Positions 27,696 through 34,240 of a DNA stretch of 38,245 bases are shown piece after piece. Position 1 is the first letter of the stretch; the number at the start of each line of letters is the position of its first letter. The notes beneath the pieces were generated by a model. It was not told where the DNA came from. It searched no databases and was given only the letters and a program-made list of their open reading frames with translations. The DNA is taken from the NCBI GenBank assembly GCA_937120965.1, contig CAKZKA010000053.1, positions 1 to 38,245 on the forward strand, in the 5' to 3' direction. The translations under genes and the position numbers were made by a program. The stretch is from an uncultured Chloroflexota bacterium (GTDB lineage Bacteria > Chloroflexota > Chloroflexia > Chloroflexales > Chloroflexaceae).

Positions 27696-28052
27696 ATGAG
27701 GGTCACGCGCGAGCATCATGTTATGCGGCGAGCAGGAGTGAACGAGACAGGCGCCGAAGAGTGGGTGTGCCCCCATTGTGGCCACCGGCTGGAGCTTCGG
27801 CTTCGACCGGTGTTGCAGGTCGAGGTGCTGGCGATGGGTGATGCGTGGGCCACGCACTGCGGCGGTCTGAACAGGATGGCAGGCGGGCCATTGCTCCTCG
27901 CTGCTGAATCCAGCCCATTCGCGGCGACCGAAGATCTCCCTTCCAGTGGTGGCGCCAATCTGGAGAACGATCAGGCGCTCGACTGGCTTCGCCCCTGGCT
28001 CAAGGCGCTCAACGCGCTCGAGGATGAGGGCCTGAGTCTCCCTGATCTGTAG
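27696..28052 (+). CDS. small zinc-ribbon hypothetical protein
   Basis: This 118-residue protein has one clear zinc-binding knuckle, EEWVCPHCGHRLELRLRP (about residues 22-39). A second cysteine in ATHCGG (about residue 53) may help complete a site. The C-terminal half is acidic and Leu/Trp-containing. No family is recognised. The start is uncertain: the ATG at 27696 has AAGGGGG rather far upstream, and the ATG at 27723 gives a shorter form beginning closer to the zinc knuckle. The upstream open frame passes through hairpin DNA and is discounted. Confidence 0.6.
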   Translation: MRVTREHHVMRRAGVNETGAEEWVCPHCGHRLELRLRPVLQVEVLAMGDAWATHCGGLNRMAGGPLLLAAESSPFAATEDLPSSGGANLENDQALDWLRPWLKALNALEDEGLSLPDL

Positions 28053-28445: not shown

Positions 28446-29549
28446 TCAAGGAAGCACCCGCAAGCGCGGCCCTGCAACAGCGGCCAGCGCCGTCGCACCG
28501 GAGAGCATCGCGACCAGCAGCGTGTGGTAGCGCCCAACCATCGGCAGTTCGAAGGTCAGTTCCAGCGGCACGTCCTGGATGGGAGGGGCCACCTGCCCGC
28601 TGGCGCTCTGGAGCACGGTTGTGGCTCCGCTCTCCAGATCGGAAGCGACCATAACGGCAGTGTAGGCGACCGGCGCGTCGACGCCATCGCCAGTCGCCGC
28701 AATGTGGAGGGTCGAGCGGGCGCATAACCGGGTCACACCAGCCGGTGATGGGGTGGGCAGTTGCTCCAGAACGAGTTCGTCGAGGAACAATTCGTACAGG
28801 CTGCCTTGCGCCGGTTCGGGCAGTGGCGGCGCCGGATGTACGAAGAAGCGCACGATCTGCCCTTCACCGGGCAGGGGTTCCGGCGCAGGCGGCTGGCCCT
28901 CGCGAATGATGCCCAGGTCGAGCACCTCGCCGTTCGCGTCGAGGCGCACTTCGACCACCGCGGCTGCCTCGCCTGGCCGGTCGGATGAAAGCGTTGGCGG
29001 AACAGGCGCTTTGCCGGCCTCTGCCAGGATCCGGGCCTGTTCGATCCAGCCACGTTTGACGATGGACTCAGCCGGTCGTTTGAGTAATTCGCCCAGCTCC
29101 TCGGCTGAAGAGCCGGCCAGTTGGGCGAAGGTGCTGATCCCGGCCTTGCGCAGCCGTTGCGCCGTCGTGGGGGTGATGCCGTTGATGCGGGTCAGGTCAT
29201 CAACCGGCGCCTCCGGCGCAGCTTCAGCCGTCTCATCGGTCGGGGCAGGCGGCATCGCGCCGGGCGCCTCGGCTGGCGGCTGACCGGCGCCTGGGGGTTC
29301 GCTCAGACCAACCACGCTGATCATCCAGTCCAGCAACTCCTGACCGGGCATGCCCGGCCAGGTCATCGAGATGCCACGCTCTTCCTGATCGGCCCGGGTC
29401 TCCCAGATCAGCCCTTCCCCCTCACCGGTCGCCGAGTGGATCGTAACGTGGAACGCAGCGCGCTCGCGCCAGGCCAACGGTGGCCGATTGCCGCTCTCGG
29501 GTGGGTTCGAACCGGCCTGAGAGGGTGTTGCTCCCTCGGATTCGCTCAT
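28446..29549 (-). CDS. helix-hairpin-helix domain protein of unknown function
   Basis: This 367-residue protein has no signal peptide or membrane segment. Residues about 25-82 form a conserved-looking N-terminal domain (LAWRERAAFHVTIHSATGEG), followed by a Pro/Ala linker. A helix-hairpin-helix pair (about 117-178) contains DDLTRINGITPTTAQRLRKA and ISTFAQLAGSSAEELGELL, a type often found in DNA-binding or scaffold proteins. The rest (about 190-367) looks beta-rich. The ATG at 29549 follows AGGAG by about 6 nt. It lies downstream of a trypsin-like protease gene in the same orientation and is bracketed by a perfect 49-bp inverted repeat. I recognise no overall family. Confidence 0.8.
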   Translation of the reverse strand: MSESEGATPSQAGSNPPESGNRPPLAWRERAAFHVTIHSATGEGEGLIWETRADQEERGISMTWPGMPGQELLDWMISVVGLSEPPGAGQPPAEAPGAMPPAPTDETAEAAPEAPVDDLTRINGITPTTAQRLRKAGISTFAQLAGSSAEELGELLKRPAESIVKRGWIEQARILAEAGKAPVPPTLSSDRPGEAAAVVEVRLDANGEVLDLGIIREGQPPAPEPLPGEGQIVRFFVHPAPPLPEPAQGSLYELFLDELVLEQLPTPSPAGVTRLCARSTLHIAATGDGVDAPVAYTAVMVASDLESGATTVLQSASGQVAPPIQDVPLELTFELPMVGRYHTLLVAMLSGATALAAVAGPRLRVLP

Positions 29550-29604
29550 TGCAGACTCCTGTTGGCACATATGTAGCTCACGCTGCCCGAGTACGAAAGA
29601 GGAA

Positions 29605-29770
29605 GGAAACCGGGTTTCCCCACCTGCGGTGAGCCTGTCGAACCGCACCCCTGCCCGTCGGGGCGCCAGACGAACCCTGCCGCGGTTGGGTATGGGGAAA
29701 CCGGGTTTCCCCATACCCCTCCCTGAGGGGAGGGTTTGGAAAGGCTGCGCCCTCCGATGAACCCCTTGTT
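29605..29770. repeat. composite repeat between the protease and HhH genes
   Basis: This includes the right arm of the perfect inverted repeat, a second palindrome GGGGAAACCGGGTTTCCCC (about 29694-29712), CCCTCCCTGAGGGGAGGG, and a GGCTGCGCCCTCC remnant. The 278-bp gap has no gene. It separates the protease and helix-hairpin-helix genes, so they may not share one uninterrupted transcript. Confidence 0.7.
29607..29655 (-). repeat. right arm of a perfect 49-bp inverted repeat
   Basis: This is the exact reverse complement of 28386-28434. Other members of the repeat family in the window differ from each other at several positions, so perfect identity over 49 bp suggests a recent event or ongoing homogenisation. 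Confidence 0.9.
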
Positions 29771-29827
29771 CATCACGGTAGTGTGCGTTGCAGCCGTATG
29801 GACGGCGGATAATATAATCTCCAGCCT

Positions 29828-30832
29828 TCAGGCCAGGTCCACCTCCAGCGCATCGAGGACCGCCTGCATATCCATGCCCTGGGCGCGAGTGCCATCGCGC
29901 AGGCCGGCATAATGGACGGCGACCGCTTGCCCCGTGGCAGCATCGAGCCACCACGAGCCGGAGTCACCCGGCATGCTGACCAGGGCCGTGCTGCGGTCCA
30001 GCGGGTAGCGGCTGATGGTGACGACCCGCTCGATGAGTCGCAACCAGTTGCCCTGGTAGGTCATCTTGTTGAACCCTTCAATGCCGGTGACCACGCCGAA
30101 GGTCTTGCCGCTGGTCAGTCCGGATTTGACCACCTGCATTCCTAGCTGTGCCCCGGTCACGCCGGTGACCCTGCCAACCTCGAGTTGGAGATTCTCCCAG
30201 CGCTCCGGCCGCGGATCGACCAGTTCGGCCACGGCAACATCCAGGCACAACTGGCCCGGCGCAGGCACCGAGAGGCGCTCTCGCGCAGCGCGGGCAACAA
30301 TGGGCGTTCGAGGGCCAGACGAACGCAAGATCGGTTGATGGATGGGCTGGCCCGCGCGGGCGTTGCGCGTGGCATACAGTACGTGCCAGTTGCTCAGGAT
30401 CATAGCCGCGCCATTCTGGCGGTCGCGGACGACCCCGCCAAGGGTGCCGTAAATATCAGCAAAGGCCGAAATGCCCAATCCGCCGCATAGCCGCGTACGC
30501 GGCGCGGTGCGCGGGCCAGACGGCGCCTCGGCCAGTAGTGGCACGCCGTATTCGGCCTCGATCACGTCGGTCTCAAACTGCCCGATACGCCGGGGCAAAA
30601 CTTTGAGCTTCAGGGCCTCAAGCTCGTCCAGGGTGTATTTTTTCGTGACGTGAAAGCGCAGGCTTACGCTGTCGGCGTCCCAGTACCGCTTCCGTGTGAC
30701 GGAGTCAGTGCGCCGGGGAAAGCCGAAATCAATCAGTCCAATGCTGTACTCAGGGCTGAGGAGGTAGTCCTGAATCATGCTTCGCAAGCTCAGGCGGGCC
30801 CGTTCAATCAGGCGCGGGTCAACACGTATCAT
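29828..30832 (-). CDS. trypsin-like serine protease without signal peptide
   Basis: This 334-residue protein has a trypsin-like fold with an intact triad: His150 (ILSNWHVL), Asp198 (QLCLDVAVAEL) and Ser291 (MPGDSGSWW). The N-terminal 110 residues (containing VSLRFHVTKKYTLDELEAL and ETDVIEAEYGVP) resemble the extra domain found in some cytosolic-looking bacterial and plant NAL1-type proteases; that comparison is from memory. No signal peptide or membrane anchor is visible, which is unusual for this fold. The ATG at 30832 follows AAGGA. The longer frame to 31033 lacks support. Neighbours are a protein of unknown family upstream and a helix-hairpin-helix protein downstream. Confidence 0.88.
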   Translation of the reverse strand: MIRVDPRLIERARLSLRSMIQDYLLSPEYSIGLIDFGFPRRTDSVTRKRYWDADSVSLRFHVTKKYTLDELEALKLKVLPRRIGQFETDVIEAEYGVPLLAEAPSGPRTAPRTRLCGGLGISAFADIYGTLGGVVRDRQNGAAMILSNWHVLYATRNARAGQPIHQPILRSSGPRTPIVARAARERLSVPAPGQLCLDVAVAELVDPRPERWENLQLEVGRVTGVTGAQLGMQVVKSGLTSGKTFGVVTGIEGFNKMTYQGNWLRLIERVVTISRYPLDRSTALVSMPGDSGSWWLDAATGQAVAVHYAGLRDGTRAQGMDMQAVLDALEVDLA

Positions 30833-30978
30833 GGTTCGGTTCCTTATGATGCTGCTGGCAAACCCCGCGTCGTCCACAGCGGGTGCGCGAGCGCCTCGCC
30901 CGTATGCGGGCCGGAGCCCGTGTGCCCGGGTTCGCCAGCGGTAATCTCTCCTTGCCCCATCGCGCCTCCCACTCCTCC

Positions 30979-31009
30979 GCCCTCCTCTCCCGTTGAGGGA
31001 GAGGAGGGC
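30979..31009 (-). terminator. perfect 13-bp hairpin between two minus-strand genes
   Basis: GCCCTCCTCTCCC (30979-30991) pairs with GGGAGAGGAGGGC (30997-31009) around a 5-nt loop, 28 bp downstream of the gene ending at 31037. There is no U-tract. It may attenuate transcription into the protease gene or protect the upstream message. Confidence 0.5.
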
Positions 31010-31036
31010 AGCGGCAGCACGCTGGCGATGCACCGC

Positions 31037-31669
31037 TTAGCGGTAGACGTCGAAGCGCACCGGACCCTGGTAGCGCGAGTGCGAACCGAGGGTGAAGAGC
31101 GAGCTGTCGAACTCGTAGACCAGGGTGGCATAGCCAGCGAAGGGAGGCGCCAGCTCGCCGTTGCAGCCGGTGATGCGGCCACGCAGGTTGACCTCGTGGA
31201 TGCCTTCGTGCTCGGGCTTGAGTTCGATGATGTACACATACCAGGCCTGGCCGGGCACGAAGTGGCTGGTATGCGAACCGGACAGGGCAAGCTCCTTGGA
31301 CAGGCTGGTGACGTTGTTGGTATCCCACGAGATCGTGTAGGGCAGGCCGAAGTTGGCAAGGATGGAAGCGGAGGTCGGCACCGGGAAGAACTCATTCAGG
31401 TACAGGATCGAGGCGATGTACACCGTCTCTCCCAGTCGCACAACCTGGTTGGGGGCCGGGAAGGGCGGAATTGGCGCCTTGAACGGACCGTAGGCGTACA
31501 TGTCCCACCACAGAGCCGGGCCAGCCGTCTGTGGCACTGCCTTCGCCATCATTTCATCATGGACGGCCTGCAACTTTGCTTCGAGCGCGGCGCGGATCTG
31601 CTCCACGGACACCTCGATTGCGCCACTCCGACTCACCGCCATCTCGCCACGGGTTACCACTGCTGTCAT
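31037..31669 (-). CDS. hypothetical protein, unknown family
   Basis: This 210-residue protein has an N-terminal region with a predicted amphipathic helix (about 18-43: VSVEQIRAALEAKLQAVHDE). An aromatic, beta-rich body follows, with features such as ALWWDMYAYGPFKAP, NQVVRLGETVYIASILYLN, WYVYIIELKPEHEG and GYATLVYEFDSSL. No signal peptide or membrane helix is present. The pattern suggests a beta-sandwich, but I recognise no family. The ATG at 31669 is firmly placed by GGAGG 7 nt upstream. It is the first of three minus-strand genes, followed by the trypsin-like protease and helix-hairpin-helix genes, so it could be a substrate, inhibitor or partner of the protease. Confidence 0.85.
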   Translation of the reverse strand: MTAVVTRGEMAVSRSGAIEVSVEQIRAALEAKLQAVHDEMMAKAVPQTAGPALWWDMYAYGPFKAPIPPFPAPNQVVRLGETVYIASILYLNEFFPVPTSASILANFGLPYTISWDTNNVTSLSKELALSGSHTSHFVPGQAWYVYIIELKPEHEGIHEVNLRGRITGCNGELAPPFAGYATLVYEFDSSLFTLGSHSRYQGPVRFDVYR

Positions 31670-32527: not shown

Positions 32528-34240
32528 CTATTCGACCGCAACAACCTGGCGGTAGAACCGTTCGAGTTCAGGGGAGGGATCGAGTCCTAACTCGGTGCGC
32601 AGGGCATTGACGCAGACCTGGTACTGGCGCACTGCCAGATGGCGCAGGCCCTGGGACAAATAGGCGCGCATCAGCAGCAGGTGCGCCTCCTCATCACAGC
32701 GCTCCTGGGCCAGAATGCGCTGCGCGTAGAGGACCGCCGTGGCAAACTCGCGCTGCCCGGCATAAAAACTGGCCAGACGATGGAGGGCCTCGCTGAGCAT
32801 GGCCTGATAGGTGTGGCGCAACTCTTCGGCCCAGGCTTCGTAGCGCTCTTCCTCCAGAAACTCGCCACGCACCAGATCCACCGCGGTAGCGTAGGCGTTC
32901 ATGGCCGCCGCCTGCTCGCCTGTAGCGTAGTGCGCCCGGGCCACGTTGATCAGGCGCGTAAACTCCTCGCTGTCAACCCACATCGTCGCCTCGGGGTTGA
33001 GGTAATAGCAGTCGTTGGCAAACATGACGATCGGCAGGTCTGGCGCAACCCGCTTGAGCGACTGGCGCAGACAATAGATCGCCTGATGCAGGCTGCGCCG
33101 GGCGAGATCAGGCTCCGACTCGTGCCAGAACAGCTCGGCCAGCAGGTCTTTCGGCGCTGGCGTGTGCCGCCGGACAGCCAGGTACTTGAAGATGGTCCGG
33201 GCGCGGTTACTCTCCCATCGCTCCACCGGCTGGTCGTCAATAGTGACCCGGAAGTGCCCGAAACACGTAACGGCGATCCTGGCGCCCCCGTGCGGCTCCG
33301 GCGGCAGATGCGGCTCGCCGTCAGGCGCCGGGCCGGCGCCGGGGTCGGGCGGAGGAGGGGGGGGCACGTTGATCTGGGGCGTCGGGAGGGGTTCGGGAGC
33401 GAGCAATGAGGCTGGCGCCGACGTTGCCGGCTCTGAGGCCAGGGGTGAGGCGTCGCGCTGCGGCAGCGCCAGAGAGGGGTAGGCTGGCGGCGCGATCGGC
33501 GGCGAGGGCGGCAGGGGGAGGCGCCCTGCCCGCAAGCTGCGCCACCAGTGCACCACCCGCTGTCCGAGCGAGGCGGTCTGCGACAGCAACTCGGAGGCAG
33601 GCGCCGACGCCAGCGTGAGCATAGGAAGCTGGATCGACCAGAGACGCTCGCCGGTGTAGGCGCGTAGATCGGTAGCCGCCTGGATCAGCCGTGTCCGCAG
33701 ATCGCGTTGCACGGCCTGAATAACCTCCGCAGCGGTACTGTGTCTGGCAAGCCCCTGCCGAAGCAGATCCTTCCAGCGCAGGATTTCCAGGCACAGTTGC
33801 GCCGCAGCTTTCAGATCGGATGCCTGCGACGCAGCGCTAAGCATCTCCAGCCCACGCGCCGCGTGCGCCAGCCACTCAGCGCCATGGCGATAGTCCCCTT
33901 GCTCAACCATGAGCGCTGCCACCTGCCAGGCAGTCAACCCGAGGCCCAGCACGTCGTGAGCGGTTTCGGCGGCGCGTATGGCTGCCGATGCGCGGGCAAC
34001 GGCCAGCGCCGCGTCACCCGTGTGCCAGTGCACCATCACCTGACCGCTCAAGGATCGCCACAACCCCTGTTGATCGTCGTGCGCGCGAAACTCCGCTTCG
34101 GCGACCGCTAGCGCTCGCAACGCCTGCAACCAGTCAGCACGTTCAAGAAGCTCTAAGGCCCGTTGGTAATGCTCCCATCCCGGATGATGCCAGAGTTCCT
34201 GCCGGTCCACTGGAACGCGCAACCACGGTTCGTCGCTCAT
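32528..34240 (-). CDS. BTAD/SARP-like transcriptional regulator with N-terminal TPR region
   Basis: This 570-residue cytoplasmic regulator has four parts. Residues about 20-195 form an alpha-helical, TPR-like region (GWEHYQRALELLERADWLQALRA). Residues about 241-318 are a Pro-rich linker. A winged-helix DNA-binding domain (about 320-415) starts RIAVTCFGHFRVTIDDQPV and includes KDLLAELFWHESEPDLARRSLHQAIYCLR. A BTAD domain (about 420-567) ends ALRTELGLDPSPELERFYRQV. The DNA-binding and BTAD parts resemble SARP activators, but these normally start the protein, whereas here they end it. The ATG at 34240 follows GAGGAGG by 5 nt. Targets are unknown. Confidence 0.92.
   Translation of the reverse strand: MSDEPWLRVPVDRQELWHHPGWEHYQRALELLERADWLQALRALAVAEAEFRAHDDQQGLWRSLSGQVMVHWHTGDAALAVARASAAIRAAETAHDVLGLGLTAWQVAALMVEQGDYRHGAEWLAHAARGLEMLSAASQASDLKAAAQLCLEILRWKDLLRQGLARHSTAAEVIQAVQRDLRTRLIQAATDLRAYTGERLWSIQLPMLTLASAPASELLSQTASLGQRVVHWWRSLRAGRLPLPPSPPIAPPAYPSLALPQRDASPLASEPATSAPASLLAPEPLPTPQINVPPPPPPDPGAGPAPDGEPHLPPEPHGGARIAVTCFGHFRVTIDDQPVERWESNRARTIFKYLAVRRHTPAPKDLLAELFWHESEPDLARRSLHQAIYCLRQSLKRVAPDLPIVMFANDCYYLNPEATMWVDSEEFTRLINVARAHYATGEQAAAMNAYATAVDLVRGEFLEEERYEAWAEELRHTYQAMLSEALHRLASFYAGQREFATAVLYAQRILAQERCDEEAHLLLMRAYLSQGLRHLAVRQYQVCVNALRTELGLDPSPELERFYRQVVAVE

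What the first reader, a model, noticed from the sequence alone, without database searches (positions are those of the whole stretch)
28446..31669. Three-gene set: unknown protein, intracellular-type trypsin-like protease, HhH protein
Three minus-strand genes encode a beta-rich protein of no recognised family, a trypsin-fold protease with an intact His150-Asp198-Ser291 triad but no export signal, and a helix-hairpin-helix protein with unassigned flanking domains. Cytosolic trypsin-like proteases are uncommon and have been linked to conflict or regulated-proteolysis systems. The set may be a protease-activated pathway, with the first protein as substrate or inhibitor. It is the most likely undescribed system here.
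Basis: inference. Interest (0 to 1): 0.6.

Follow-up and report, generated by a model that had tools for sequence, protein, structure and literature searches.

The report
Bacterial gene cassette with swappable enzyme
The three genes are a real, conserved unit: a cell-internal relative of the plant leaf-width protease NAL1 sits between two new partner proteins, and related bacteria keep the same partners but exchange the protease for other, unrelated enzymes, which points to an undescribed bacterial system of unknown purpose.

Summary
Gene A (31037-31669), protease B (29828-30832) and HhH protein C (28446-29549) are real and form a conserved operon. In the class of the window, 14 genomes carry an ortholog of B and all have A beside it; C follows wherever the contig continues. 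Two MAGs named Gammaproteobacteria carry A; the one examined has the whole set. B is NAL1-like: its profile hits rice NARROW LEAF 1 (E about 1e-9). The triad is intact in 15 orthologs, and no signal peptide was found.

The set is larger than three genes. A BTAD regulator (F), a small CPxCG protein (D) and, in many relatives, a stand-alone copy of the protease's N-terminal domain (E) belong to it. The enzyme is interchangeable: related loci keep F, C or Ig-like proteins but carry V8/trypsin-type proteases, an M36 metalloprotease fused to C, or a vanadium bromoperoxidase; two have none. So co-occurrence holds, but A is unlikely to be a substrate or inhibitor specific to this protease; E is the better regulator candidate. 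Best model, partly inferred: an Ig-like scaffold holding a cytosolic enzyme under a dedicated activator. Function is untested. I found no earlier description.

The parts
31037..31669 (-). Gene A: 210-aa protein, N-terminal helix (22-42) plus Ig-like beta-sandwich (about 50-210); no Pfam, NCBIfam, PADLOC or PHROGs family
29828..30832 (-). Gene B: 334-aa NAL1-like trypsin-fold serine protease; N-terminal domain (about 1-100) then protease domain with H150, D198, S291; no signal peptide
28446..29549 (-). Gene C: 367-aa protein: small beta-beta-beta-alpha domain X (about 30-82), HhH (about 115-180), degenerate second X (about 195-245), C-terminal Ig-like domain (250-366)
32528..34240 (-). Gene F: BTAD (PF03704) transcription regulator with winged-helix and TPR-like part; a related gene adjoins most loci of this type
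27696..28052 (+). Gene D: 118-aa protein with one conserved CPxCG knuckle, convergent with C; found almost only in genomes with the cassette

Best explanation
The genes are one version of a modular cassette. Shown: a shared core, made of a BTAD regulator (F), a small CPxCG protein (D), an Ig-like protein (A or a different Ig-like family, A2) and an HhH/X/Ig protein (C), is linked to an interchangeable enzyme. Here the enzyme is a NAL1-like serine protease without export signal. Inferred: F switches the operon on; A and C form an Ig-like scaffold that holds the enzyme in the cytosol and presents it to its target; the enzyme then acts on other molecules, not mainly on A or C. In most NAL1-type relatives a stand-alone copy of the protease's N-terminal domain (E), often overlapping the B stop codon, tunes assembly or activity of the protease. 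The most likely use is a regulated effector for stress or conflict in these (mostly filamentous) bacteria; that last step is the weakest.
For: Co-occurrence: A, B and C are adjacent in the 12 genomes first found, as far as contigs reach, and identity matrices correlate at r 0.83-0.91. L067, a MAG named Gammaproteobacteria, carries F-A-B-E-C. Swapped enzyme with the core kept: L072 has F, C, a V8/trypsin-like protease, an A paralog, a second C and a second such protease. L086 has F, an A paralog, an M36 metalloprotease fused to HhH-X-Ig, and D. L111 and L117 have F, an Ig-like A2 protein and a vanadium bromoperoxidase, with C in L111 and D in L117. E is the N-terminal domain of B (hhalign 96.8%, E 2.7e-10); its ATG overlaps the B stop by 4 bp in five Roseiflexaceae loci, and no E was found in loci with another enzyme. 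F: only 9 BTAD genes in the 5.18-Mb genome, so about 0.02 would be expected within 5 kb by chance. No signal peptide in A, B, C, D or the swapped enzymes tested. NAL1 of maize is found in nucleus and cytoplasm and degrades a specific regulator (PMC12915138).
Against: No protein complex, substrate or phenotype has been tested. The scaffold role rests on Ig-like folds (models of moderate confidence, pLDDT 73-75) and on persistence across enzymes. M36 and vanadium haloperoxidases are usually secreted enzymes (own knowledge), which fits a cytosolic effector poorly. There is no PADLOC hit and no defence island around the window locus. Some loci have no enzyme at all (L115, L118). Each non-NAL1 enzyme type is known from only one or two loci, mostly MAGs.
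Confidence: 0.4

Rival explanations
1. Non-classical export or packaging cassette: A, C and D carry or coat enzymes that act outside the cell but lack signal peptides, and release happens by lysis or an unlinked machine.
For: M36 (with FTP propeptide and P-domain) and vanadium bromoperoxidase belong to families usually secreted (own knowledge), yet here they have no signal peptide. C is fused to the M36 enzyme.
Against: No secretion or injection gene was recognised at any locus read. A contractile-sheath gene (PF04984) is found in 11 of 15 A-positive genomes but also in many A-negative ones, and is absent from G082, which is 99% complete. NAL1 of maize is intracellular (PMC12915138).
Confidence: 0.25
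2. Ordinary regulated proteolysis: B is a specific processing protease for an endogenous regulator, with A and C as substrate adaptors, comparable to plant NAL1 and TOPLESS; no conflict role.
For: NAL1-like family, triad intact in all orthologs, dedicated regulator F, chromosomal site near dcw genes.
Against: Patchy distribution within one genus (G056 has none), a probable transfer to another phylum, and replacement by an M36 metalloprotease or a bromoperoxidase do not fit a conserved processing step.
Confidence: 0.2
3. Protease-activated pathway: B cleaves A or C, and the cleaved product is the effector or an inhibitor is destroyed.
For: Adjacent partners with correlated divergence; long unstructured linkers in C (pLDDT<50 at 83-112 and 181-194) could be cut.
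Against: The same partners occur with a metalloprotease, with proteases of another S1 subfamily and, in the case of C and Ig-like A2, with a bromoperoxidase that cleaves nothing.
Confidence: 0.12

Closest known systems
NARROW LEAF 1 (NAL1) serine proteases of plants and their bacterial and phage relatives (Pfam Nal1_C PF25819; PHROG 20754)
   Same: N-terminal domain followed by a trypsin-fold domain with His-Asp-Ser; no signal peptide; profile match to solved rice NAL1 over both parts; PHROG 20754 'protease' E 8.2e-21.
   Different: B itself has no Pfam Nal1_C hit; it is embedded in a multi-gene cassette with Ig-like partners and, in relatives, a stand-alone N-domain (E), which the remote solo relatives L026 and L027 lack.
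VMAP/vWA-MoxR ternary conflict systems with Trypco1/Trypco2 (PMC7159879)
   Same: Small partner protein next to a trypsin-fold protease; variable effector enzymes; multicellular bacteria including Chloroflexota.
   Different: No MoxR, vWA, VMAP or Trypco gene recognised among the window proteins scanned; the core here is BTAD + CPxCG protein + Ig-like + HhH/X/Ig.
Nuclease-protease pairs of AVAST, Hachiman, Lamassu and canu systems (PMC12799240)
   Same: A protease (trypsin-like, or a caspase in canu) in a compact operon with partner genes; canu loci also carry Ig-like folds.
   Different: No MBL-fold nuclease and no protease fused to a defence enzyme; the protease is NAL1-like and can be replaced by a non-protease.

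Membership tests
NAL1-like serine proteases | Catalytic His-Asp-Ser in a trypsin fold | tested here: met
   H150, D198, S291 invariant in 13 aligned homologs and kept in L067, L084, L085; the fold is inferred from homology, B was not modelled
NAL1-like serine proteases | Sequence homology to NAL1 over N-terminal domain and protease domain | tested here: met
   hmmsearch E 9.7e-10 to 8pme_A, two stretches, query 35-154 and 220-321
NAL1-like serine proteases | Match to Pfam Nal1_C PF25819 above its cut-off | tested here: not met
   B: no Pfam hit; the B ortholog in L085 18.6 bits against a cut-off of 26.1; remote solo relative L026 26.8 bits, met. So B is called NAL1-like by homology, not a Pfam member.
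NAL1-like serine proteases | Intracellular, no signal peptide | tested here: met
   Hydropathy scan with secreted and membrane controls; location itself was not measured
NAL1-like serine proteases | Oligomeric assembly and proteolytic activity | not testable with these tools
   needs purified protein
VMAP/Trypco conflict systems | Trypco1 or Trypco2 partner beside the trypsin | tested here: not met
   A has no Pfam, NCBIfam or PADLOC match; caveat: I did not check that each of these libraries holds a Trypco model
VMAP/Trypco conflict systems | MoxR ATPase and vWA protein in the operon | tested here: inconclusive
   No such hit among the 10 window proteins scanned or seen in the gene list of the window; flanking genes of the other loci were not all scanned
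Nuclease-protease pairs (AVAST, Hachiman, Lamassu, canu) | MBL-fold nuclease upstream of the protease | tested here: not met
   The gene upstream of B is A, an Ig-like fold with no Pfam match
Known anti-phage defence systems | Match to a PADLOC model | tested here: not met
   A, B, C: none at E<=1
eCIS cargo | Occurrence together with a contractile sheath gene | tested here: inconclusive
   PF04984 in 11 of 15 A-positive genomes and 55 of 158 overall; absent in G082

The most novel reading that the evidence does not exclude
A previously undescribed class of system: a common carrier module (BTAD activator, CPxCG protein, Ig-like protein, HhH-X-Ig protein) that deploys interchangeable toxic or degradative enzymes (NAL1-like and V8-like proteases, M36 metalloprotease, vanadium bromoperoxidase) without signal peptides, as a lineage-specific weapon or self-destruct device of Chloroflexales, spread to at least one other phylum.
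Probability: 0.35. Interest if true: 0.8.

Novelty: new variant of a known kind. Interest (0 to 1): 0.6.

Why it matters
A shared core with interchangeable enzymes is what one sees when a delivery, activation or scaffold module is selected independently of its enzyme. If the core is shown to hold or deliver its enzyme, it would give a new way by which bacteria control dangerous hydrolases and oxidases. It would also place the NAL1 protease family, studied in rice and maize for yield and flowering, in a bacterial setting where its N-terminal domain occurs as a separate gene; that makes the role of that domain directly testable.

Tried and rejected
(1) Chance neighbours: rejected by strict co-occurrence. 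(2) Exported protease: no signal peptide found. (3) Phage or plasmid origin of A: none in viral contigs or in plasmid records. (4) Obligatory link to eCIS: not supported. (5) A and the C-terminal domain of C as sequence relatives: hhalign 0.4%; both are Ig-like folds, but homology is not shown. (6) Remnant of gene E between B and C in the window: none. (7) Fold search: A matches generic Ig-like domains (VIA Z at most 9.5) and C 250-366 matches GH2-type and Brr2 Ig-like domains (Z at most 11.2), no specific family; domain X was barely tested, and no gasdermin or other named toxin fold appeared in the lists. (8) Searches of a sample of other phylum members with A and C profiles found none outside the class; the G232 and G121 hits look like antisense noise. 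(9) Other Ig-like A2 hits in G010, G070, G123 and G372 are solo genes without F, D or C. (10) A first scan of genome contigs with B alone gave nothing. (11) Paper searches found no description of this cassette.

Full report
What is there. The window is one whole contig (C53, 38,245 bp) of a 5.18-Mb genome G000. Its relatives include Roseiflexus MAGs and Chloroflexi bacterium OHK40, so it belongs to the Chloroflexales (inference). The three minus-strand genes exist as described. A is 31037-31669. C is best started at ATG 29549. A and B have no Pfam match at E<=1; C has an HhH domain only. None of A, B, C has a PADLOC match.

Conservation. B was found in 14 of 150 genomes of the class, 12 as close orthologs and 2 as remote relatives. 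A was found in 12 of 150, the same 12 genomes and always beside B. C is beside them in those genomes as far as the contigs reach. A wider profile of A over all 158 genomes of the class found 15. Two of the three new genomes carry A with a NAL1-like B (G371, G373); the third (G377) carries A with another enzyme. Pairwise identities of A, B and C correlate across 12 loci (A/B 0.91, A/C 0.90, B/C 0.83); shared ancestry of the genomes contributes to this. G056, of the same genus and 99% complete, has no hit for A or B, so the set is accessory. A scan of GTDB genomes with the A profile also returned two MAGs named Gammaproteobacteria. In L067 the order is F-A-B-E-C; L068 was not read in detail. Misbinning of these MAGs is possible and was not excluded.

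What B is. The profile of B matches rice NARROW LEAF 1 in the PDB (E 9.7e-10, two stretches covering the N-terminal and protease parts). A remote relative in the same class reaches the Pfam Nal1_C cut-off, and a phage family called protease matches B at 8.2e-21. B is therefore NAL1-like, although B itself has no Pfam hit. All 15 orthologs read keep the triad. No hydrophobic N-terminal segment is present, while a secreted and a membrane protein of the same window score clearly. Maize NAL1 is found in nucleus and cytoplasm and degrades a specific corepressor (PMC12915138).

The unit is larger. All-against-all comparison of the neighbourhoods and profile annotation show three more genes. F, a BTAD regulator (window 32528-34240), adjoins most loci; only 9 BTAD genes exist in the whole 5.18-Mb genome, so about 0.02 are expected within 5 kb of a given place. 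In the complete genome L019 no F was found near the set, so F is usual, not universal. D, a small CPxCG protein (window 27696-28052, plus strand), occurs in 14 of 158 genomes, 12 of them A-positive. E, an 80-residue protein between B and C, is a stand-alone copy of the N-terminal domain of B (hhalign 96.8%, E 2.7e-10). Its start codon overlaps the B stop codon by four bases in five Roseiflexaceae loci (coordinates). E is missing from the window and from L015 and L016, without a trace.

The enzyme is swapped. In G048, of the window's genus, a second locus (L072) reads F, C-type, V8/trypsin-type protease, A paralog, C-type, second such protease. The two proteases show no meaningful BLAST similarity to B; the first has Asn in place of the catalytic Asp, the second is intact. 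In G377 (L086) the order is F, A paralog, then one 1063-residue protein made of an M36 fungalysin with HEYTH motif, a P-domain and an HhH-X-Ig tail, then D. In G148 (L111) and G149 (L117) the enzyme is a vanadium bromoperoxidase (L111: PDB match 1.8e-101; L117: by sequence resemblance) with a different Ig-like protein, A2. L115 and L118 have F, D, A2 and C but no recognised enzyme. Thus regulator, CPxCG protein, Ig-like protein and HhH-X-Ig protein are the recurring part, though not every locus has all four; the NAL1-like protease is one of at least four exchangeable enzymes. No E was found in the loci with another enzyme.

Structures. A is predicted as a helix (22-42) and an Ig-like sandwich (50-210), pLDDT 73.5, with only generic Ig-like matches (Z up to 9.5). 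C is predicted with a beta-beta-beta-alpha domain X, the HhH, a degenerate X and an Ig-like domain 250-366 matching GH2-type and Brr2 Ig-like domains at Z up to 11.2. HhH domains of this type are appended to other Chloroflexales proteins, so here they are more likely protein contacts than DNA-binding (inference).

How it may work. Because A-family proteins stay while the protease changes family, and because C and similar Ig-like proteins stay beside a non-protease, A is unlikely to be an inhibitor or substrate designed for this protease. A scaffold or presentation role is the simplest reading. E, tied to NAL1-type loci and overlapping B, is the natural candidate for tuning B. Whether the enzymes act inside the cell (effector for stress or conflict) or leave it by a route not encoded here is open: M36 and bromoperoxidase families are usually extracellular (own knowledge), yet have no signal peptide here. 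A test for dependence on contractile injection systems was inconclusive. I put 0.40 on the cytosolic effector scaffold, 0.25 on non-classical export, 0.20 on ordinary regulated proteolysis, 0.12 on cleavage of A or C.

Known or new. The defining parts of the trypsin-containing conflict systems that I could test are not met: no PADLOC hit, no Trypco-type partner recognised, no MBL nuclease beside B. No paper found describes the cassette; most subscription papers could not be searched. The enzyme family itself is known; the cassette is not, as far as the held libraries show. I file it as a new variant of modular enzyme-effector cassettes and leave open that it is a new class.

Noticed in passing
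window, 16 sites including 4035, 7558, 14351, 25525, 28328, 29695, 32218: Palindromic repeat GGGAAACCNGGTTTCCC, 16 matches with up to one mismatch against 0 in shuffles, in several of the gaps between genes, including around C.
   Followed up: partly
window 2772-23031: Complete-looking cell-division (dcw) cluster on the minus strand (apparently ftsZ, ftsA, mur genes, mraY, ftsI, mraZ); names from sequence reading, not tested.
   Followed up: no
L072:8659-9729: V8/trypsin-like protease near an A paralog with Asn instead of the catalytic Asp (HNYGAI), so possibly inactive, with an intact paralog in the same locus.
   Followed up: partly
L134-L141 (G372, G010, G123, G070): Solo Ig-like proteins of the A2 family, most ending in GPELQFY, with no regulator, D or C gene nearby.
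   Followed up: partly
L054 and L056: An HhH domain of the same type at the end of an unrelated protein in L054, just before a GvpN-like AAA gene; a similar AAA gene adjoins the HhH hit in L056. This suggests a lineage-wide contact module.
   Followed up: no
L026:5294-6409 and L027:9126-10259: Solo NAL1-like proteases elsewhere in the class, without A or C.
   Followed up: partly
L116:9003-9263: A D-type CPxCG protein alone in a stretch of small unassigned genes of G002, possibly a mobile element.
   Followed up: no
L118:6772-7971: 399-aa protein of no Pfam family next to F, D, C and A2; could be another kind of enzyme for this cassette.
   Followed up: no
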